Assembly (NCBI GenBank): GCA_022650485.1
Contig: JALCPP010000007.1
Span: 1-64,000 of the forward strand
Length of the DNA stretch: 64,000 bases
Reading direction: 5' to 3'
Origin: Oscillospiraceae bacterium
Lineage (GTDB): Bacteria > Bacillota > Clostridia > Oscillospirales > Acutalibacteraceae
The translations under genes and the position numbers were made by a program. Below, in pieces: positions 2,891 through 24,070 of this stretch (its first letter is position 1; every line of letters starts with the position of its first letter). The notes beneath the pieces were generated by a model. The model saw nothing but the letters and a program-made list of their open reading frames with translations. It was not told the origin of the DNA and did not search any database.

Positions 2891-5800
2891 TTATTCATGA
2901 ACAACATACTCCAATGGACGGATCATGCCTTCAATCATATTAATCTCATCTTCCGTGCAATGATAACGCTCATATAGCTGAGCATCAGTCCACGTATGTT
3001 TATAGTCAAGATATGGGACAAAGCGGAAATTGCTTTTTGAAATATTCATTGAAGAATAAGTCTCATGAAGTAAAAATCTTGGGAATTTCAAAGTCATATA
3101 CTTCGCAAAATTTTCAGCTTCCAGTTTCGAATCGAAAGCTGATAACAACAGATAAGAATCCGTAAATGCTGAGTTCGGATAAAGAAGCTGTACAGTTGAA
3201 ATAACGCGATACCCAATACTGGGATCAACGCCAACCTCACCGCCACGTGGAACGACCTTACCAATTATAACTTTATATTTTGGAAGCAAATCCTTTTGTT
3301 TTCCTACTTGGTCTTCATTAATATATGTTACTGCCATACTATTGCTTTTTTGGCTGCAAAACAATGCGATCGTATGTTTTGCATCAGGTTCGTCTTGTCC
3401 TCGAAAATTAGATGAAATTCTGAACACATTTCTGGTATAGACGTAATCGCCCATTTTTTTATCTGAACATTCTTCTACACGTTTCATGAGCTGTACAGAT
3501 TCATTATTCCGTATAAAAATATCGTATTCAGACAGCTTTCGGAACAGAGTTGTCACTTTATTACCGCGAACAGATACCACCTCGCAGTCACCATCATATG
3601 TGTTATCCCAAAGAAAATAATTGACGCCACCAACAATTGCAACGCCTTTAAAAAGCACTTCATTATCAGTGTAATCTACAATTTTTCGTAAGTGCATATC
3701 TTGTAGCATTACAGCTCGGAATTCATCAAGTCCTTTTCCACCTGCAAACCAACGGGATGGGGTAATCATAGACAAATAGTCAGGATTAAGATTTTTCGCC
3801 TGCTCAACAAACAATTGATATACAGGTTTTGCACTATATCCTTTTCCTCCGCCATCCATGACTTGATAGGGCGGATTACCTACCACTGCATCAAACTTCA
3901 TATTCCCACCACAGTCCTTATTCCAGTATGAACATTTGAGAACTCTCTTTGTAAAGTTCTCCGGCTTATTTTTAAGCATGTTAATAAGGTCGTCGAAGTA
4001 ATGTGCATTAACCTTGGCATCCCTGTAGCCGACCAGTGTACGCCGCGTGATAAATTTTGCCATCGGCGTCTTACAGATAACGAATATATTTTCGCGCACA
4101 GTTTCATCCCAGAGTTTTTGCTGCAATTCCTCATCGAGTTGTTCCGCCGAATGTGCGGAGCATTTTGTTCGGTAAATGCTGTAGGTAACATAGAGGGGAT
4201 ATAAACCGGTTTTTGAATTAATCTCCAGTATCTGCGCTTTTGTATTGGAAAATGTGTTGGCTGTCACCTTACCGCGATCCACAAATCTCGGCTCGTTCAA
4301 AAGTTCCGTATGCGTTTCATTGTAGAAGTCATACCCGCCGATGCAGTCGCTCATGTGCATATTTACAACACGCCATGGGGTCAGCACGGTTTCCTTATCT
4401 GGGTTTTTGAAGCAGGAGAACAGAGCGGTAATCTTCTTCACGCGTTCCAGAGGAAGGAGGCTGTCAGCATTGTATGCTTCAGCTCTGATCTTGCGTCCGG
4501 CAGCAATAAAAACTTCCGGATCATAGTATTTAATAAAGCTTTTGAAAGTCGCTTTTGTAACTCCGGCAGGCATAAATTCATCCCATGATTTATCATCTAC
4601 AATAGCGGTAAGCTGATTAATAGTGATATCTTCAGTGATGTTGATGTCAGCTCCGTAAATTAAAAGCGGTATTCTGATGGAAATGCCACGCAGGATAGAA
4701 ATAGCGTCTGACTTCTGCTTGCGTTTTTCCTGGAGTTCCTTTAGTCTTGCCTCTTCCTCCGGAGAACGATCCTCTCTACTCTTTTTCTTGATGCGTTCGA
4801 TTTCTTCATATTGCTCATCAGTAAAGCCCTGATGGTTTATATCTATCTCACTGGTTTTGGGTGCTGCTTTTGATACGCCCATAATGCCCTTTAGGTCTTT
4901 GAATTTTTCGAGATCAAGCTTATCCAGCTTGAGAAGTTCATCATTGTAAAGATTGATGTCATCAAAGCCATTCTGCACGGCTCGCTCGGCATAGGCGCGC
5001 TTGAGTTGTTGCAGGAGTTTGTTTGTATCGTACTGCTTCATCTCTGTACCGCTGACAGAAATCACTGGGCAGTAATTGAGGAATTCGCCCATAATGACCT
5101 TGTCCGATTCCGTAGCCTTTCCGGCTTTCGTCGAGAGCGCAGCAGCCTCTGCAAGCATTTTCAGAGTACGGTCGGGAGCAAAGTCAAAAACGAAGCAGTT
5201 CTGCTTGACCTGTCCATTTTTTTTGCAGGGGGACTGTACGCGGAATATGGTCTGCAAGTAACTTGACGCAGAAGTTGAGAAAGAACCTGCAAGCATGAAT
5301 ACGGCAGTCCATTCTGGCACGGTCACACCGGTGGTCAGTTTGCCGCAGGAGAGTGTGATGGTATAGCCATCGTCACCGGCTGCGGCGATAGCATCCTGAA
5401 CCTTTTTCAGGGCATCCTCAGATTTTTCTTCCTCATCGCCATCTCCGGCAACGTTCACAATTTCAAATGCTCCGCTACCGAATACAGGGTGCTTTTTCAG
5501 CAGCTTGCTGAGTGCCCTTGCCTCCCGAACGCCGGGAACCATCCAGAGCGTATGGCGAAACAGCTTACGGTATTCTTCGTTGGAATATGGATAACAACTT
5601 GTTTCGTTCTCCGCTGTAATCAGGTTCAGAAAGCTCCACACATCTTTTTCATGGTAAAAGTCTCCGACACTCTTTCCGGCTGGAATTCCGGTTCCGTCAT
5701 GGTGCAAACTGCCTGTCCATGTTCGGAAGAATTCGTGGAAATTGAAAGCCTTATCTTCTAATTCTACATAACGAGCCTCTGAAATAATCTGGCCAAGATC

Positions 5801-6913
5801 ATATGTGTAAATCCAAAGCTCCGGGAGTTCGTCATAAGGGTTGGAGTCGCCGAAATGTTCAGCATCCCAACCTTTTTTGCTCCGTTGCTCCATGACATAA
5901 TCCCATGTATAGATATTGTCATCGTAGTCTTTTAAGATATTAAACGGAGTGCCGGATAGCGCAAGGAACTTCGTATTATATCCACTGTTCTCCTTGACAA
6001 TTTTTTTGATGACTTCATCGCCAAGAGCTGTAGTCGTGCCTTCATGAGCTTCGTCAACGATAACCAAATCCCAGTTCTGGGCGAATACCGTATCGTTCTT
6101 ATCAAACTTACCGCCGACAGTTGCAGAACCTCTCAAATCTTGAATTGAGGCAAAATACACGAATTTCTTGCCACTTGATAGCAAATAGTCAATATCCGTT
6201 CCGGTATTTTTTGAGCCGTAGAGGTAATTGTCCGCACCGTGAAAGATTTTGCCGAAGTCCTCATACCAGCCTTTATCAACAACAGGGCGATGCGTAATGA
6301 TAATCGTTTTGGAGTACCCGGATTTCTTTACCACGTCGAGGGCTGACAGCGTTTTGCCGAAGCGCATTTTTGCGTTCCAGAGCATACGGTTGTTGGTTTT
6401 AAACTGCTTAATGGTCTTGAAAATGGCATCTTCCTGTTCCGGCCTGAATATGATTGGCACAAAATTTTCAGCACCCGTGTTGGTGAAATTAGGCTGATCT
6501 TTTTTGACTGCATCAATTGCTTTCTGTATGGTCTGAAAATTGGTCTCGAACCACTCTCTACTGGTCGAGTTTTTCATCTTCTTTTTTGGAATTCCGGAAT
6601 TTTCAAGCACACGATGAACATCATAATCGCGGAATGGTTTCAGTTCATAACTGCCTTTATCGTTTTTGACTGTGCGAACAGCAAGTTCCGTGTGCAGCAA
6701 ATGAGGTATCAATCCGGCAGTATTCGTGTATTGCCGGATTCGCTTGAGCGCTGCTTGATTCAATTCTTTGCTGTTGGGAGAAAGGCTGTCGATTGGACTA
6801 TCCGTGTAGAGCGAGGCGTCGCCCACCTTAAGCAGTCCCTTATGCGTTTCAGAGTTAATTTCAAAGACATAAATGACCTTATAGCAAAAAGCCGAGCCAA
6901 ATTTTTTGCTCAT
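2891..6913 (-). CDS. SF2 helicase plus Eco57I-type N6-adenine methylase, restriction-type enzyme
   Basis: A 1340-residue multidomain protein. Residues 1-100 resemble a GIY-YIG/T5orf172-like unit (VIYVFEI, LLKVGD, then a conserved His at HTEL). Residues ~160-650 are a superfamily 2 helicase: KMRFGKT (182-188) as motif I, VDEAH (286-290), SGTP (320-323) and a TTGVTVPEW...RVQSPC segment for motifs V-VI. A coupling region follows. The methylase has VLTPWRVV near 844 (motif X-like), ILEINSKTG near 897 (SAM loop-like) and NPPY at 1013-1016 (catalytic motif IV). The last ~200 residues probably recognise DNA. This resembles single-chain Type ISP or Type IIG/I-like enzymes, but without an obvious Mrr nuclease at the N-terminus. 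The start overlaps the previous gene by 4 bp (ATGA). The gene is more AT-rich than its ICE neighbours. Confidence 0.8.
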   Translation of the reverse strand: MSKKFGSAFCYKVIYVFEINSETHKGLLKVGDASLYTDSPIDSLSPNSKELNQAALKRIRQYTNTAGLIPHLLHTELAVRTVKNDKGSYELKPFRDYDVHRVLENSGIPKKKMKNSTSREWFETNFQTIQKAIDAVKKDQPNFTNTGAENFVPIIFRPEQEDAIFKTIKQFKTNNRMLWNAKMRFGKTLSALDVVKKSGYSKTIIITHRPVVDKGWYEDFGKIFHGADNYLYGSKNTGTDIDYLLSSGKKFVYFASIQDLRGSATVGGKFDKNDTVFAQNWDLVIVDEAHEGTTTALGDEVIKKIVKENSGYNTKFLALSGTPFNILKDYDDNIYTWDYVMEQRSKKGWDAEHFGDSNPYDELPELWIYTYDLGQIISEARYVELEDKAFNFHEFFRTWTGSLHHDGTGIPAGKSVGDFYHEKDVWSFLNLITAENETSCYPYSNEEYRKLFRHTLWMVPGVREARALSKLLKKHPVFGSGAFEIVNVAGDGDEEEKSEDALKKVQDAIAAAGDDGYTITLSCGKLTTGVTVPEWTAVFMLAGSFSTSASSYLQTIFRVQSPCKKNGQVKQNCFVFDFAPDRTLKMLAEAAALSTKAGKATESDKVIMGEFLNYCPVISVSGTEMKQYDTNKLLQQLKRAYAERAVQNGFDDINLYNDELLKLDKLDLEKFKDLKGIMGVSKAAPKTSEIDINHQGFTDEQYEEIERIKKKSREDRSPEEEARLKELQEKRKQKSDAISILRGISIRIPLLIYGADINITEDITINQLTAIVDDKSWDEFMPAGVTKATFKSFIKYYDPEVFIAAGRKIRAEAYNADSLLPLERVKKITALFSCFKNPDKETVLTPWRVVNMHMSDCIGGYDFYNETHTELLNEPRFVDRGKVTANTFSNTKAQILEINSKTGLYPLYVTYSIYRTKCSAHSAEQLDEELQQKLWDETVRENIFVICKTPMAKFITRRTLVGYRDAKVNAHYFDDLINMLKNKPENFTKRVLKCSYWNKDCGGNMKFDAVVGNPPYQVMDGGGKGYSAKPVYQLFVEQAKNLNPDYLSMITPSRWFAGGKGLDEFRAVMLQDMHLRKIVDYTDNEVLFKGVAIVGGVNYFLWDNTYDGDCEVVSVRGNKVTTLFRKLSEYDIFIRNNESVQLMKRVEECSDKKMGDYVYTRNVFRISSNFRGQDEPDAKHTIALFCSQKSNSMAVTYINEDQVGKQKDLLPKYKVIIGKVVPRGGEVGVDPSIGYRVISTVQLLYPNSAFTDSYLLLSAFDSKLEAENFAKYMTLKFPRFLLHETYSSMNISKSNFRFVPYLDYKHTWTDAQLYERYHCTEDEINMIEGMIRPLEYVVHE

Positions 6914-7896
6914 GGTCTTGCCTCCTTCACCAAAGATTTATATTCCAGAATCACTTTCGAACGCCAATCTTTTATAAGACAAAGTTTAGCAAATACTTCA
7001 TTCTGGGGTTCCATTGAATCATTTATATAGCCCTCATCAAACAGACTCAATTGATTACCGTCTTCTTTAACTTCACCGTAAGGGATGGTATATGTCATGC
7101 CGTCCATTTGCCATAGATTCCATGAGATGATTGTGGCGATTGATTCTAATTCGTGTATGGTCGGATCGCGTTGAAGTTTAAATCGAACGTTATCAATAAA
7201 GGTATAAAGCAAATTTTCTCGCGCCAACAGAAGATTGTCACCTTGAAATTCATAAGCATATACGCTTTGAAAGGCCCGTTTCGTCCATTTGAACCATTCT
7301 GATTCTTCGTCAGTGTTCTCATTGACAATACGAAGTTTTCGGTCTAATAGTCCAATCCTTGATGGCAAAGCAATTATTTTTCCCGTAGTGGTATCGTATC
7401 TGCTTACCAGATATGGAGCTTCACCGCAGGAGATTTCCATGCGCTTTGCATCGACATACTTTTGCCATGTTCCGCCTTTTTTATTGGGAAATACAATTGG
7501 CTTGGCCTTTGCTACCCAAGAAGTGCCTCGCGGTGTATTGAATACATTTTTTCTGCCGAACCATGCCTCATCAATAAGGTTGTTCTGAGCATTACATATC
7601 CAGGACGGAGTGAATACCTCTGCTTTGTCCCTTGTACGAGAGATTTGATCTGTTTGTGCCTTAGTTATCCGGGGCTGTATAACCTTTGAGTAATTTCCTG
7701 TTATTTGCGTTGCTTCTATCGATTTTTTCGCCCCATATTCTTCACCGAATTGAACGTAGTCTTCCGTGGCCCAAATGATATTTCTGCCAGTAGTATGGTC
7801 AAGGAGGATAATGTGAAGCAGCAAGCTGCTGTAATCAGCTATATCCCGTTCAAGAATATCAATTTCAGGATTAACTTGCACTTGCTCACCTTCCAA
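6910..7896 (-). CDS. Methylase-like restriction subunit without NPPY motif
   Basis: 328 residues. EVFTP at 93-97 is the motif X signature of gamma-class N6-adenine methylases, followed by WICNAQNNLID. MEISCGEAPYL (~153-163) and AYEFQGDNLLLARENLL correspond to the SAM-pocket and motif II/III regions. No NPPY/DPPY catalytic motif can be found, so it is probably not active alone. It may pair with the 1340-aa protein, which has its own NPPY, as a specificity or SAM-binding partner. Proteins of this type are often annotated restriction endonuclease subunit M. The 4-bp overlap with the next gene suggests fixed stoichiometry. Confidence 0.65.
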   Translation of the reverse strand: MEGEQVQVNPEIDILERDIADYSSLLLHIILLDHTTGRNIIWATEDYVQFGEEYGAKKSIEATQITGNYSKVIQPRITKAQTDQISRTRDKAEVFTPSWICNAQNNLIDEAWFGRKNVFNTPRGTSWVAKAKPIVFPNKKGGTWQKYVDAKRMEISCGEAPYLVSRYDTTTGKIIALPSRIGLLDRKLRIVNENTDEESEWFKWTKRAFQSVYAYEFQGDNLLLARENLLYTFIDNVRFKLQRDPTIHELESIATIISWNLWQMDGMTYTIPYGEVKEDGNQLSLFDEGYINDSMEPQNEVFAKLCLIKDWRSKVILEYKSLVKEARP

Positions 7897-7917
7897 TATA
7901 ATTAAGATTAACTATTG

Positions 7918-8742
7918 TCAAATACTCTGCCGTACCAGTTCGTCGAGTGTTTTACCGTCCTTGCTCTTCCATTCGACCCAGCCGTTGTTGCTACCGCCGA
8001 GGACAAAATCAGCGGCCCCGCTGGGTGTTTTGAATCCTATTATTTTTTTGAGATAATACTTGCCGTCACTCTGCTTAGTAATAGTTCCATCACCAAGTAG
8101 CGCCTTGCGTCGAGCATTATAGCTTTCTAATTTTGCCGGATGTGAAAAGTCAATTTCAGAATTCGGTTGCACCTCAAAATGTTCACCAGTATAGACACCA
8201 TAGGCAACCACTCCCCGTCTTGACGTGGTAAAGACATTTTGAGCATCAACACCACTCATCCGATAACCCAGTGTTGCCATAACAAATTCGATTTCCTCAT
8301 AGATTTCCTCTATCAACGGAAAATCATATTCTGAAATTTTGTATTTTGGAACTGCTTTGTTATCCACGCGGTAACGATTAGCATCAATGGCACGTTGAAT
8401 CGAATATTTTTCAAGTCCACTGATTATATTCAGCGTAAAATGTTCGTCGTTTGCCAGAAACAAAATGGCCTTATTCCAGAAATCTTTTTTTGCATTGTGA
8501 TCGTCAAGTCTCGTAATGCCATTTCGGGTCTGCCCTATGTATATCTGCGTCAACGCTCCGGTTTCATCATTGATGAGGAAATATACACCGGGGTTGTCAG
8601 TGCCGGTCAAAGTTTTTGCTTCGTTGAGATACGGGCGCGGTACTACAAATGCTTTGATTGTAGAAAGTGGACGCATATAGATTCGGATACCGTCTGGTTC
8701 TCCGTTGTGAAAAATGATTTCTATTCTTTTTGCCTTACCCAT
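7918..8742 (-). CDS. GIY-YIG nuclease with C-terminal DUF4357
   Basis: 274 residues from the ATG at 8742, chosen because GGAGG lies seven bases upstream; an in-frame ATG at 8766 lies further inside the preceding gene. GVYFL (~52-56) and IYIGQT (~67-72) form the GIY-YIG core, followed by an Arg and His in ITRLDDH. The last ~55 residues have the DUF4357 pattern: GDGTITKQSDGKYYL, FKTPSGAADFVLG, NGWVEWKSKDGKTL. Such proteins accompany restriction systems; a DNA nicking or cleavage role is inferred. It overlaps the controller gene by 8 bp and is followed 21 bp later by the methylase-like subunit. Confidence 0.75.
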   Translation of the reverse strand: MGKAKRIEIIFHNGEPDGIRIYMRPLSTIKAFVVPRPYLNEAKTLTGTDNPGVYFLINDETGALTQIYIGQTRNGITRLDDHNAKKDFWNKAILFLANDEHFTLNIISGLEKYSIQRAIDANRYRVDNKAVPKYKISEYDFPLIEEIYEEIEFVMATLGYRMSGVDAQNVFTTSRRGVVAYGVYTGEHFEVQPNSEIDFSHPAKLESYNARRKALLGDGTITKQSDGKYYLKKIIGFKTPSGAADFVLGGSNNGWVEWKSKDGKTLDELVRQSI

Positions 8743-8965
8743 GGTGCGCCTCCACTGCCGTCCCATCTTGAATTAAGTCTATAATATCGCCTATATTTAC
8801 ATGAAGCGTAGCGCATATTTTCCCTAGTATTGCAAGTGAAACTTCTTCGTCACGACGCAGTTTCGTCATTGTATTGGGAGCAATTCCAGCGGCTTTCCGC
8901 AAGTCAGCTTTGCTCATCTTTTTATCCACCAACAACTTCCACAGCTTGTTGTAAGAAACGGTCAT
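8735..8965 (-). CDS. Xre-family helix-turn-helix controller
   Basis: 76 residues from the ATG at 8965, preceded by GGAGG with an eight-base spacer; an in-frame ATG at 9031 lies upstream of the predicted promoter -10 and is rejected. The fold is a compact five-helix Cro/C1 type: SYNKLWKLLVDKKMSKADLRKAAGIAPNTMTKLRRD, then LAILGKICATLHVNIGDI. It heads the restriction-type operon and its promoter carries a palindrome over the -10 box, so it is likely an autoregulating controller comparable to C proteins of restriction-modification systems. Confidence 0.75.
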   Translation of the reverse strand: MTVSYNKLWKLLVDKKMSKADLRKAAGIAPNTMTKLRRDEEVSLAILGKICATLHVNIGDIIDLIQDGTAVEAHHG

Positions 8966-8999
8966 TATTGTGACCTCCGGTTTCATCGCATAATATAGC

Positions 9000-9031
9000 A
9001 ACATTATACAATGTTTATTGCTTGCGCTCAA
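9000..9031 (-). promoter_or_regulatory. Promoter and operator of the restriction-type operon
   Basis: On the minus strand TTGAGC (9026-9031) and TATAAT (9003-9008) are 17 bp apart. The perfect palindrome AACATT-ATAC-AATGTT (9000-9015) covers the -10 box. Binding of the Xre protein here would shut off the operon; this is inference from position. Confidence 0.65.
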
Positions 9032-9122
9032 GTTAATTTCGCATAATTTTGCGAATCTATCGCAATTTTGATGAAAACATTTTCATAGGAAATTCCTGTT
9101 TTTTGTAAAGGAGGTTCTGCTC

Positions 9123-11081: not shown

Positions 11082-12311
11082 ATGAAAATAGTTCCTGTGG
11101 CAGGAGTGGATGTAAGCAAGCGCTTTAGCGATATGTGCATTCTCTCTCCAGAAAATGATGTGTTCGCCCGTGTGAAAATCTACCATGACCTTACCTAAAT
11201 GGAACGTGCTTTGGGGCCACTGCAGGAGGCAGAGAAACAATTTGGAAAACGTCCTGTTCTTGTGATAGAATCTACCTCTCACTACCATCTGATACTATTC
11301 CAGTTTTTCAGGAAAGCTGGATATGAAGTAATTGTGGTCAATCCCATCCAAAGCGGAGCTCTCAGAAACATCAAAGTACGAAAACTCAAGACAGACAAGG
11401 TGGATGCTTATCGGCTTGCCATGCTGTATCGCATCAAAGTGCTGCGGCCCTCACAAGTTCCAATGGACGCCCTGCGGGGATTGCGTCTGTTATACAGACA
11501 GCGGTTTGAATTGACGCACGACATCACCTGCTTCAAAAACCGTCTGACCGCACTGCTGGATCAGATCTTCCCGGGTTACGAAAAAGTGTTCGCCGACGTG
11601 GGCGGATCGTCCTCCATCGCCGTACTATCTGTCTATCCCACACCGCAAACGCTCGTTCAGGAAGATCCTGATACACTGGCAACTCCCAGCCGCAGCGGTG
11701 CAAGCTTTGGAAAGAAAAAAGCAGAGGCCCTGCTTCAGGCAGCGACAGGCACCTGCCGAATTGGACTTGATTCCCCCGGCAACGCAGCCATCATTCTGTC
11801 AACTATCGCTGTCCTGAACAGTCTAAAAGAAAGCAAATCAAGATTGGAACAGGAAATTCAAGAGTTGATCTCACGAGAGCAATATATCCGAAATAACCTT
11901 GCACTACTTCAGACCATTCCGGGCATCGGGCCTCAGTCCGCCGCCGTGATCTTGTCCGAAATCGGAAACATCTCGCTGTTCCAAAAGCCAAAGCAGCTTG
12001 CCGCCTACTTCGGTCTCGACCCTTCCGAGAGACAATCTGGTACGTTTCATAGCTCAAAGAACAAACTCTCCAAGCGCGGTTCTCCCTACGTTCGGGCCAT
12101 GCTCCACATGGCCGCGCACAACTCTGTACACAGTACGAAAAAACATCTCCCAGGCAGGGGCAATCCTGTGCTAGCAAAAAAGTGCCGGAGCAAGCCGCCT
12201 AAGGTCGCCATGTGCACGGTGATGCATAAGCTGTCCAACATTATTTTCGCCGTTCTGCGTGACCAGAAGCCTTCGAATTGCGTCAGCCACAGGAACACGC
12301 TCATAGGTTAG
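11082..12311 (+). pseudogene. IS110-family transposase interrupted by an in-frame stop
   Basis: Reading from ATG 11082 (AAGGAGGAAAGGCA upstream) gives the DEDD_Tnp_IS110 start MKIVPVAGVDVSKRF with the first catalytic Asp at residue 10. A TAA at 11196-11198 (codon 39) then interrupts, and the same frame continues for 370 codons. The remaining acidic residues are at VIESTSHYH and KTDKVDAYRLA; the C-terminal Transposase_20 domain has TIPGIGPQSAAVILSEIG and RGSPYVRAML with the expected Ser. The full length of ~409 residues is normal for IS110. The first catalytic Asp is cut off from the rest, and the downstream ATG at 11199 lacks it, so the enzyme should be inactive unless the stop is read through. 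Confidence 0.85.
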
Positions 12312-22180: not shown

Positions 22181-22308
22181 GTTGGTTGGCATGTTTGCAT
22201 ATATCCAACCAAGGTGCAATAATGATGGTGTACACTGCTCCTTGACAACTGAATATTGAAACGAGCCATATGCATCATCTTTCAGATATTTGAATCGAGG
22301 TTATGTAT

Positions 22309-23952
22309 ATGGATAAAATCATAGATTCTGATGTTTCTCAAAAACGGGTATATTGTCTTTACCGCGTATCGACTCTCGGTCAGGTGGAAAAGGACGACAT
22401 TCCGATGCAGAAGCAGCGCTGCCGCGAGTTCGCGGACGCACAGGGTTGGAAGATTATCAAAGAGTTTTCCGAGAAAGGCGTATCCGGATTCAAGGTATCC
22501 GCAAAAGACCGCGACGTCATTCAGCATATCCAGCAGGATGCAGTCGCCAAAAAGTTTGACATTCTGCTGGTGTTCATGTTCGACCGTCTCGGACGGCGCG
22601 ACGACGAAACACCCTTTGTCGTGGAATGGTTTGTAAAGAACGGCGTTGAAGTCTGGAGTGCAATGGAAGGCCAACAGCGATTCGATTCCCATGTGGACAA
22701 GCTGATGAACTACATCCGCTACTGGCAAGCCTCCGGTGAAAGTCTGAAGACTTCCGTTCGTGTGAAAACGAGGCTGGGACAGCTTACCGAGGAAGGATTA
22801 TACACCGGCGGTTCCATTCCGTTCGGATACCGACTTATAAAGAGAGGCCGTGTCAACAAGCGCAATCGTGAAGTTTACGATCTGGCCGTTGATGAAAACG
22901 AAGCCGAGATTGTTCGCCTGATTTTTCACAAGTATGTTGACGAAGGATTCGGTGCACAACGCCTGTGCCGGTTTCTGCATGACAACGGTATCAAAAGCAG
23001 AGACGGCAAAGGATTCCCCAACACGAGCCTGAACCGCATCATCAAAAACGTCATGTACACGGGCATTCTTAAGAACGGCGACAGCCAATCACAGTATATC
23101 GACGCTCTGCGGATTATCGATGACGATGTATTTGCCCACGCGCAGGATATCATGCGGCAGAGGACCCAACCCCACAGTTCTGTTCCGCTCAACTGCAAAG
23201 GAAAGTCTCTGCTGGTGGGAAATATCTTCTGTGCCCACTGCGGCAACCGGCTGACGCTGACGACCAGCGGGAGAAAGAAAAAGATGCCGGACGGCACCGT
23301 CCAGAAGGAAATCCGAATGCGATATCAATGTCATTACAAGGTACGACACCCCGGGGAATGTGAAGGACAGTCGGGTTATTCCGTAAAGAAAGTCGATGCG
23401 ATAGTTGATCAACTCATTCGCATGAAATTCTCTGAAATCACGGCGGCGTCGGAATCAGAAATTCTTTCCGGCCAACATGCAAAAGATATTGAACTAGCAA
23501 AGTCAAAGTACGAAATGGCAAAAACACATCTGCTGAACAAACAAAAAGAGCTTGACGAATACAAAAACGAAACTCTCAAAGTCATTCGCGGCGAGAGCAG
23601 GATGAGCGTCGATCTGCTGAACACAATGGTAGTGGAAACCGATGGGAAGATCAAAGAGGCGCAGGCGGCTTTGGATGCGGCAGACGCAGAATTAAAGGAG
23701 CTACTCGAAACCTCGGAAAACCGAAAGCGCGAGTATGACCGGCTTCTGAGCTGGGCGGACCTGTACGACAAAAGCTCCTTTGCGGCAAAGAAAATGATTG
23801 TGTCACAGTTTATCAAGGCTGTCCGCGTCGGCAGGGACTACAATATCGAAGTAGACTTCAACGTCTCCTTTGACGAGTTTCAAAGTTTCTGCGGCGTGAA
23901 AGCCAAAGAAAGCGTAGAGGCGAAAGATACGGCAATTGTACGCACAGCATGA
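22309..23952 (+). CDS. Large serine recombinase (ICE integrase)
   Basis: 547 residues from ATG 22309 (GAGG eight bases upstream; ATG 22303 two codons earlier is too close). Resolvase domain 1-150: YRVSTLGQ with nucleophile Ser21, then MQKQRCREFADAQGW, FMFDRLGRRDDE with catalytic Arg. The recombinase domain follows (~160-270: GGSIPFGYRLIKRG, VDENEAEIVRLIF, NTSLNRIIKNVMYTGIL), then a zinc ribbon (CAHCGNRLTL with a second pair near CHYKVRHPGEC) and a long coiled coil (~385-490). It cuts and rejoins attachment sites to integrate and excise the ICE. The stop codon lies 42 bp from tRNA-Ala. Confidence 0.9.
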   Translation: MDKIIDSDVSQKRVYCLYRVSTLGQVEKDDIPMQKQRCREFADAQGWKIIKEFSEKGVSGFKVSAKDRDVIQHIQQDAVAKKFDILLVFMFDRLGRRDDETPFVVEWFVKNGVEVWSAMEGQQRFDSHVDKLMNYIRYWQASGESLKTSVRVKTRLGQLTEEGLYTGGSIPFGYRLIKRGRVNKRNREVYDLAVDENEAEIVRLIFHKYVDEGFGAQRLCRFLHDNGIKSRDGKGFPNTSLNRIIKNVMYTGILKNGDSQSQYIDALRIIDDDVFAHAQDIMRQRTQPHSSVPLNCKGKSLLVGNIFCAHCGNRLTLTTSGRKKKMPDGTVQKEIRMRYQCHYKVRHPGECEGQSGYSVKKVDAIVDQLIRMKFSEITAASESEILSGQHAKDIELAKSKYEMAKTHLLNKQKELDEYKNETLKVIRGESRMSVDLLNTMVVETDGKIKEAQAALDAADAELKELLETSENRKREYDRLLSWADLYDKSSFAAKKMIVSQFIKAVRVGRDYNIEVDFNVSFDEFQSFCGVKAKESVEAKDTAIVRTA

Positions 23953-23956
23953 GAGC

Positions 23957-23989
23957 AAAAAAAGAGGAAATCTTTCAACAGATTTCCTC
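23957..23989 (-). terminator. Terminator of tRNA-Ala
   Basis: 10-bp perfect stem (23964-23973 with 23980-23989), 6-nt loop; on the minus strand it is followed by seven T. It sits five bases after the tRNA 3' end and almost touches the recombinase gene. Confidence 0.85.
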
Positions 23990-23994
23990 ATACA

Positions 23995-24070
23995 TGGTGG
24001 ACCTGAACGGGATCGAACCGTCGACCTCTCGGATGCGAACCGAACGCTCTCCCAGCTGAGCTACAGGCCC
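23995..24070 (-). tRNA. tRNA-Ala (anticodon CGC)
   Basis: 76 nt with encoded CCA. Acceptor GGGCCTG/CAGGTCC carries the G3-U70 wobble that identifies tRNA-Ala; D arm GCTC/GAGC, anticodon loop TTCGCAT gives CGC for codon GCG, T arm GACGG-TTCGATC-CCGTT. The gene abuts the ICE recombinase on its 3' side and a tandem repeat array on its 5' side. Confidence 0.95.

What the first reader, a model, noticed from the sequence alone, without database searches (positions are those of the whole stretch)
2891..9031. ICE-borne four-gene restriction-type operon with unusual composition
Seen: Xre controller, GIY-YIG/DUF4357 nuclease, an EVFTP methylase-like protein lacking NPPY, and a 1340-aa protein with a T5orf172/GIY-YIG-like head, SF2 helicase and an NPPY methylase. 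All genes overlap or nearly touch and share one promoter. Known single-chain Type ISP enzymes carry an Mrr nuclease and no partner subunits; Type I systems have separate R, M and S. This set matches neither exactly. Inference: a defence or ICE-protection system in which cutting is done by GIY-YIG domains and a second, catalytically incomplete methylase acts as specificity or SAM-sensing partner.
Basis: partly seen in the sequence, partly recalled or inferred. Interest (0 to 1): 0.65.

Follow-up and report, generated by a model that had tools for sequence, protein, structure and literature searches.

The report
Restriction system with split methylating enzyme
A mobile element carries a DNA-defence operon in which one protein probably holds the methyl donor and a second, giant protein carries the DNA-reading, methyl-placing, motor and cutting parts; it is a fused relative of a little-studied, already noticed 'split methylase' family.

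Summary
In detail: an Xre gene (X), a GIY-YIG/DUF4357 gene (G), an EVFTP protein without NPPY (M) and a 1340-aa protein (H) form one tight minus-strand operon among mobilisation genes. The core is M + H; G is optional (profile hits in 5 of 108 sets, two of them the window itself). M and H's NPPY part are most likely two halves of ONE gamma-type m6A methyltransferase: M has motifs X-III, H's C-terminal third has NPPY to the recognition region. In 7 of 108 sets they are one open frame; two phages carry them without the helicase. H has its own N-half, but with a degenerate SAM site (Lys for the first motif-I Gly in 107 of 108 rows, motif-II acid in none). Otherwise H resembles Type ISP enzymes, with a T5orf172 (GIY-YIG-like) head in place of Mrr. 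Prior art: the 'split methylase/RM' DrdVI (6mA, GCAGCC) is homologous, with the same complementary motifs on separate genes. Not found in print: the Lys-type site, the interchangeable fusions, and replacement of the NPPY half, with a break at NPPY, while M stays the same. New variant of a known kind.

The parts
9003..9031 (-). sigma-70-like promoter candidate (TTGAGC-17-TATAAT) for the operon
   Evidence: not above chance by number
9038..9055 (.). palindrome TTCGCA-AAATTA-TGCGAA just upstream of the promoter candidate, possible operator for X
   Evidence: read; inference
8735..8965 (-). X: Cro/C1-type HTH_26 regulator (listed ORF starts at 9031; ATG at 8965 preferred)
7918..8766 (-). G: GIY-YIG + DUF4357 (RAMA-like) protein, PADLOC candidate family PDC-S14; optional accessory
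6910..7896 (-). M: SAM-binding N-half of the methyltransferase (EVFTP, EISCGEAPYL, YAYEFQGD, QMDG; no NPPY)
6482..6913 (-). H residues 1-144: T5orf172 (GIY-YIG-superfamily) head, candidate nuclease
4979..6466 (-). H residues about 150-645: SF2 helicase/translocase (RFGKT, DEAH, SGTP, QTIFRVQ motifs conserved)
3899..4978 (-). H residues about 646-1005: coupler-like region, then a degenerate methylase N-half (LTP motif X near 843, motif I ILEINSKTGLY with Lys901, motif II FVICKT at 944 without acid)
2894..3898 (-). H residues about 1006-1340 ('NPPY module'; NPPY at 1013): catalytic half plus target-recognition region; exchangeable in relatives

Best explanation
The core is a two-protein, ATP-dependent restriction-modification system. 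M binds S-adenosylmethionine and supplies methylase motifs X, I, II and III. H's C-terminal module supplies NPPY and the target-recognition region; M plus this module make one m6A methyltransferase that marks the host's sites. H also carries an SF2 motor, a coupler, a SAM-blind methylase N-half and a T5orf172/GIY-YIG-like head, in the order of a Type ISP enzyme. On unmodified sites the motor would start to translocate and the head would cut. Shown by sequence or predicted fold: homology of the parts, the split, natural fusions, loss of SAM-site residues in H's own N-half, conserved helicase motifs, Type ISP-like domain order. Inferred: that M and H's NPPY module dock as in the fusions, that the product is m6A, that the head cuts, and that X represses the operon.
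For: M-NPPY fusions: 7 of 108 sets, and 6 further places in 6 of 11 M-positive genomes (own genome included) among 295 drawn from the order. The fused ORF of L074 folds (pLDDT 81, pTM 0.79) as a methyltransferase like CamA (Z 18.3, 420 residues, model 77-668 across the junction at about 317). Phages PTm1 (two genes) and FNU4 (one ORF) have both parts; their whole records give an Eco57I match and no match to H's helicase segment (no positive control). M, by alignment columns of 98 rows: motif-II acid 98, C-G-E of motif I 98; NPPY 0 of 98. EVFTP and QMDG are conserved too, but loci were found by such patterns. NPPY in 63 of 63 full H. H's own N-half: Lys at the first motif-I Gly in 107 of 108 rows, motif-II acid in 0 of 108 (positions matched between groups by eye; 106 rows distinct). 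M lies next to or is fused with the other parts in 88 of 94 judged loci. H fold: LlaBIII first, E 7.6e-21 (TM 0.26/0.22). pDrdVI has a chain with LEPACGSGNF and no NPPY, a chain with LDPCTKSGVF and NPPY, and a helicase; M1-2.DrdVI is listed as 6mA, GCAGCC (PMC6430315, whole text). Heads: T5orf172 in 37 of 41.
Against: AlphaFold2 of H alone (residues 145-1340; pLDDT 83.3, pTM 0.66) closes H's own degenerate N-half onto the NPPY module as a full CamA-like fold (Z 22.1, above the 18.3 of the M fusion), so M would have to displace it or dock otherwise; no complex could be predicted. M's motif I (E-I-S-C-G-E-A-P-Y) is itself not the textbook DPACGSG. In a more distant family (L159, L164, L165) the NPPY ORF keeps a canonical motif I although a separate N-half gene follows in L164 and L165. 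In 6 of 94 judged loci M has no partner nearby: L083 looks like a chimera; the viral contigs L096 and L103-L106 show no Eco57I match in the records held, which may be fragments. Nuclease activity of the head is untested.
Confidence: 0.73

Rival explanations
1. H alone is a complete Type ISP/IIG-like enzyme: its own N-half, despite the Lys and the missing acid, binds SAM, and M is a separate regulator or activator.
For: AF2 closes H's own N-half and the NPPY module into one fold, Z 22.1 with CamA. PADLOC matches H to a Type IIG enzyme profile and M to a Type II methylase profile. The Lys-type motif is strongly conserved, so it has a function.
Against: Motif-II acid 0 of 108 in that N-half; M-NPPY fusions, and phages with M plus the NPPY half but no helicase match; homologous DrdVI is listed as M1-2.
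Confidence: 0.15
2. All four genes form one machine in which G (GIY-YIG/DUF4357) is the essential nuclease.
For: G overlaps X and lies 21 bp from M in the operon and has GIY-YIG above the Pfam cut-off. A G-like frame begins within 90 bp after H in L093.
Against: The G profile hits 5 of 108 sets: the window, its own assembly copy, the same-genus relative, L093 and L099. In L093 Pfam finds DUF4357 but no GIY-YIG.
Confidence: 0.07
3. A modification-only or mobile-element-stabilising system whose head no longer cuts.
For: The head is a weak T5orf172 match within full-length H (17.8 of 20 bits); from recalled knowledge of the fold an Asp stands where GIY-YIG enzymes have the metal-binding Glu; two phages keep the methylase parts without a helicase match.
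Against: Head residues Y, K, G, R, D, E invariant in 41 of 41 aligned heads; core helicase motif residues invariant across 55 rows.
Confidence: 0.1

Closest known systems
DrdVI / MaeIV 'split methylase/RM' family (REBASE Type IIG)
   Same: Separate SAM-type N-half without NPPY, NPPY protein with a Lys-type N-half, SF2 helicase with a T5orf172-like head; the pDrdVI NPPY protein aligns with H 865-1335 (6e-69) and its helicase with H 14-763 (1.7e-67). That these CDS are M1 and M2 of DrdVI is my assignment from the plasmid; MaeIV genes were not examined.
   Different: In pDrdVI these are three genes; here helicase and NPPY protein are one chain, and M is 328 aa instead of 212 aa and only distantly alike (BLASTP 9.5e-5; M profile 4.5e-12). 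An HTH gene and G belong to the operon.
Type ISP enzymes LlaBIII and LlaGI
   Same: Order nuclease - SF2 motor - coupler - gamma-methylase - TRD; best PDB fold matches of H (first three rows).
   Different: Mrr nuclease replaced by a T5orf172 head; not single-chain; H's methylase lacks SAM-site residues and a separate M is present.
CamA (C. difficile m6A methyltransferase)
   Same: Best VIA-align match of both the M-NPPY fusion (Z 18.3) and H's C-terminal third (Z 22.1); sequence-profile match 7.8e-08, mostly in the NPPY half.
   Different: CamA is one intact chain; no motor, no nuclease (recalled).
PADLOC PDC-S14 (for gene G)
   Same: Near full-length profile match, 1.3e-65.
   Different: Only a candidate defence family; three papers mention it (listing only), no function seen.

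Membership tests
DrdVI-like split methylase/RM | Separate N-half protein with SAM motifs and no NPPY | tested here: met
DrdVI-like split methylase/RM | NPPY chain with Lys-type N-half homologous to the pDrdVI NPPY protein | tested here: met
   (H 865-1335, 6e-69)
DrdVI-like split methylase/RM | SF2 helicase with T5orf172-like head, homologous to the pDrdVI helicase | tested here: met
   (H 14-763, 1.7e-67)
DrdVI-like split methylase/RM | N-half, NPPY protein and helicase as three separate genes (pDrdVI layout; not a stated family criterion) | tested here: not met
   helicase and NPPY protein fused in H; filed as a variant
DrdVI-like split methylase/RM | m6A at a specific site | not testable with these tools
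   needs methylome sequencing
Type ISP | single polypeptide with all activities | tested here: not met
   separate M gene beside H; M present beside, or fused to, the other parts in 88 of 94 judged loci; definition from PMC3874165 passages
Type ISP | N-terminal Mrr-like nuclease | tested here: not met
   T5orf172 head instead
Type ISP | order motor - gamma-methylase - TRD | tested here: met
   LlaBIII and LlaGI are the top three rows
Type I | separate R, M and S subunits, M with NPPY | tested here: not met
   no separate S gene in the operon; M lacks NPPY
classical Type IIG (Eco57I, MmeI) | one chain R-M-S without SF2 motor | tested here: not met
   helicase in H and separate M
GIY-YIG superfamily (H head) | T5orf172 domain above the curated cut-off | tested here: met
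   window head 25.6 of 20 bits; 37 of 41 heads at E <= 0.01

The most novel reading that the evidence does not exclude
One catalytic/recognition half serves two masters: bound to M (SAM site) it methylates; bound to the SAM-blind, Lys-type N-half of the motor it scans for unmodified sites and licenses translocation and cutting. N-half exchange would then be the switch between modification and restriction, and the NPPY-to-C-terminus module would be a specificity cartridge swapped by recombination at the NPPY codons, as S subunits are in Type I.
Probability: 0.3. Interest if true: 0.8.

Novelty: new variant of a known kind. Interest (0 to 1): 0.55.

Why it matters
A defence-gene library has separate profiles for M, the NPPY half and H, each named as a methyltransferase or Type IIG enzyme (PADLOC PDLC03390, PDLC03375 and PDLC03626), so methylomes of these organisms may be assigned wrongly. 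If the split is right, these systems separate cofactor binding from catalysis and recognition, which makes re-targeting by swapping one module easy and gives a simple genetic test. The Lys-type pseudo-site poses a sharp question about how such enzymes switch between marking and cutting.

Tried and rejected
Reading G as a core subunit: rejected because its profile hits 5 of 108 sets. Strict rule 'canonical SAM motif and NPPY never on one chain': rejected, because the M-NPPY fusions and the NPPY ORFs of L159, L164 and L165 break it. Cassette inversion as a general mechanism: only one suggestive locus (L098; L112 is the same record), no exact repeat of 14 bp or more between the two modules of L034. 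PDB profile search with the H alignment: no hit at E <= 0.01; G by phmmer: only weak colicin E5 hits, E 0.58 and above. Megablast of the operon against plasmids: no match. PMC12942858 (Eco57I methylase gene as an ICE insertion site; passages) was not relevant. Literature: all 10 searches; only led to the brief 'split methylase' mentions (PMC4335053 passages, PMC10113651 passages, PMC6430315 whole text). PMC4335053 cites PMC3936762 for them; in the passages I saw of that paper I found no such description. PMC3874165: passages. None of the passages seen mentions the Lys-type N-half, NPPY-module replacement or T5orf172 heads; subscription papers and REBASE pages were not searchable. Regex counts were replaced where loose: the Lys motif (some rows mis-picked) by alignment columns, and M's motif II (the pattern also allowed Gln) by alignment columns. 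The family-2 N-half profiles hit each other's chains, so chains were re-sorted by motif. The automatic change point of L014/L090 (-24) differs from the DNA break. Rows dropped: duplicates L091, L094 and L049, the window's own copy L001 and its relative L002 from several counts; two loci that end right after M. The 108 rows hold two duplicates.
Full report
OBSERVATION. The minus-strand operon is real: X (HTH_26), G (GIY-YIG + DUF4357), M (328 aa), H (1340 aa), with overlaps or gaps of at most 32 bp. It lies between NikA/MobC-like and DUF5699 (Maff-2-like; name recalled) genes and a MobA/VirD2 relaxase. It has lower GC than both flanks (0.426 against 0.54 and 0.532). The same block is 95.0% identical over 9231 bp in one same-genus genome. 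M was found in 2 of 98 relatives and 11 of 295 genomes drawn from the order, the window's own genome counted in both, so it is sporadic, as mobile cargo is.

WHAT M AND H ARE. M carries EVFTP, EISCGEAPYL, YAYEFQGD and QMDG and stops where NPPY would come. These are motifs X, I, II and III of a gamma-type methylase (motif names are recalled knowledge). In an alignment of 98 M sequences the motif-II position is acidic in 98 (86 E, 12 D) and the C-G-E of motif I is kept in 98; NPPY occurs in none. EVFTP and QMDG are also conserved, but the loci were fetched with such patterns, so that is no independent evidence. H carries a head, an SF2 helicase (ResIII 3.6e-13), a linker and an Eco57I domain with NPPY.

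NATURAL FUSIONS. In 7 of 108 sets M and the NPPY half are one open frame (L009, L072, L074, L082, L085, L101, L102); in others M, NPPY half and helicase are three genes (for example L004, L008, L034, L071, L075, L095); 63 open frames (61 distinct) have helicase and NPPY half fused as in the window. Tenacibaculum phage PTm1 has a free NPPY half and M, and Fusobacterium phage FNU4 the fusion. Over the whole of both phage records the Eco57I family matches once each and H's helicase segment does not match at E <= 0.001 (that search had no positive control, but an overlapping query found H in the window's genome). Six more fusions came from 6 of the 11 M-positive genomes of the order. A tree of 87 NPPY halves mixes the layouts: 26 changes for four labels (3 would be the least; shuffles average 39.7, so the labels are still clustered); the 7 fused rows need 7 changes, at least 6 forced by well-supported branches (L074 sits on a long branch). 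So the NPPY half has moved repeatedly between being fused to M, fused to the helicase, and free. Of 94 judged loci have M adjacent to or fused with the other parts. M was the query there; the reverse search follows.

REVERSE SEARCH AND A SECOND FAMILY. Searching viral contigs with H gave 63 loci. L118-L157 have another layout: a short chain with a canonical SAM motif (LEPACG-x-GNF) and no NPPY, a chain with LDP-x-x-K[ST]GVF plus NPPY, and a helicase with a related head. Of these 40 loci (some near-duplicates) 36 show both chain types, 2 only the Lys-type chain (L129; L148, which is cut) and 2 neither (L146, L149, both cut). L117, which has a window-type H without window-type M, has a short canonical N-half gene just downstream. 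Alignment columns give the sharpest result: in the N-half attached to the helicase or to NPPY, the first motif-I glycine is lysine in 38/38, 24/25, 11/11 and 34/34 rows of four groups (107 of 108; 106 rows distinct) and the motif-II acid is absent in all 108; motif positions were matched between the groups by eye. The 32 short N-halves have D or E there in 32 of 32 and NPPY in 0 of 32; they were picked by their motif I, so that motif is not counted.

STRUCTURE. The L074 fusion folds with pLDDT 81 and pTM 0.79 and matches CamA over 420 residues across the M/NPPY junction, Z 18.3. H residues 145-1340 fold with pLDDT 83.3 and pTM 0.66; the best PDB matches of the whole are LlaBIII (two chains) and LlaGI, Type ISP (E 7.6e-21 to 2.5e-14; TM only 0.22-0.26, so the overall superposition is poor), and its last third matches CamA with Z 22.1. 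This second match tells against a simple reading: in isolation H closes its own degenerate N-half onto NPPY. Both partners are thus structurally possible, which is why I propose, as the boldest reading, that the NPPY half alternates between them.

HEAD AND ACCESSORY GENE. The head alone passes the T5orf172 cut-off (25.6 of 20 bits); 37 of 41 heads match at E <= 0.01. Invariant head residues in window H numbering are Y15, K29, G31, R58, F94, D96, E120. From recalled knowledge of GIY-YIG enzymes, an Asp replaces the usual metal-binding Glu, so activity is plausible but open. G is found by profile in only 5 of 108 sets (the window, its assembly copy, the same-genus relative, L093, L099) and is treated as optional. 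The most frequent close neighbour is an HTH gene, within 1.2 kb upstream in 23 of 81 loci with enough sequence.

MODULE REPLACEMENT AT NPPY. In L014 and L090 the helicase part is 98% identical and M 100%, but the NPPY-to-end module only 36%. DNA identity of 98.5% ends at base 7018 of L014, inside the NPPY codons (7008-7019, computed). Of 57 pairs with at least 70% identity before NPPY and at most 55% after it, the best change point lies directly after NPPYQ (+5 columns) in 32 and within +4 to +7 in 37; the rest range from -52 to +93. Pairs share members (40 of 61 systems) and NPPYQ is itself conserved, which draws the change point to its end; the high-identity pairs are the safer evidence. In L043/L052 and in five pairs among L055, L060, L066 and L068 the last 45 columns are 80-84% identical again where the middle is 25-29%, as if a cassette had been replaced. 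One viral-collection contig (L098) carries two extra NPPY modules behind H, one inverted, with exact repeats of 29 and 36 bp.

WHAT IS KNOWN. [quoted passage not shown] M1-2.DrdVI is listed as 6mA, Type IIG, GCAGCC, on plasmid pDrdVI, cloned and expressed in E. coli (PMC6430315, whole text). A C. [quoted passage not shown] I linked these to the present family: the family-2 N-half hits pDrdVI, whose three adjacent genes (taking them as DrdVI is my assignment) have the same complementary motifs and align with window M (weakly, 9.5e-5; the M profile matches at 4.5e-12) and H (6e-69 and 1.7e-67). So the split principle is known and, for DrdVI, its product is reported as 6mA. The window system is a fused, extended variant.

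VERDICT. A real, widespread restriction-modification type, best described as a Type ISP-like motor enzyme with a GIY-YIG-superfamily head and a split methylase. The split itself is prior art in brief form; the Lys-type N-half, the interchangeable fusions and the replacement at NPPY were not found in the literature I could search.

Noticed in passing
L098 11060-14324 (same record as L112): Two extra NPPY-TRD modules behind H, one inverted, with exact inverted repeats of 36 bp (end of H's N-half) and 29 bp (NPPY region): possible specificity-switching cassette.
   Followed up: partly
L034 1949-2863: A second NPPY module on the opposite strand upstream of M; no exact repeat of 14 bp or more with the operon's own module.
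   Followed up: partly
L160, L164-L168: A more distant family with a short SAM N-half gene downstream of the NPPY or helicase gene; in L164 and L165 the NPPY chain keeps a canonical motif I of its own.
   Followed up: partly
L009 7932-9821 (phage FNU4): The annotated methylase starts at 8184, after the EVFTP motif; the open frame begins upstream and includes EVFTP.
   Followed up: no
window 9038-9055: Palindrome TTCGCA-AAATTA-TGCGAA upstream of the operon's promoter candidate, a possible operator for X.
   Followed up: no
window 11199-12311 and 22303-24070: IS110-type transposase right of the relaxase; a large serine recombinase gene lies beside a tRNA-Ala gene.
   Followed up: no
L115 34-4434 and L117 5137-9534: Window-type H with an extra N-terminal stretch of about 160 residues before the head; no window-type M in the sequence held (L115 is little longer than H).
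   Followed up: partly
L083 8905-10638: After M the frame reads like a metallophosphatase-type start (my reading) joined to a helicase C-terminal stretch without NPPY: chimera or remnant.
   Followed up: no
L096, L103, L104, L105, L106: Viral contigs with an M gene but no Eco57I-family match in the records held.
   Followed up: partly
L077 8367-12984: In Mycoplasma simbae the system lies in several short frames under table 11; the organism may read TGA as Trp (recalled), so this need not be decay.
   Followed up: no
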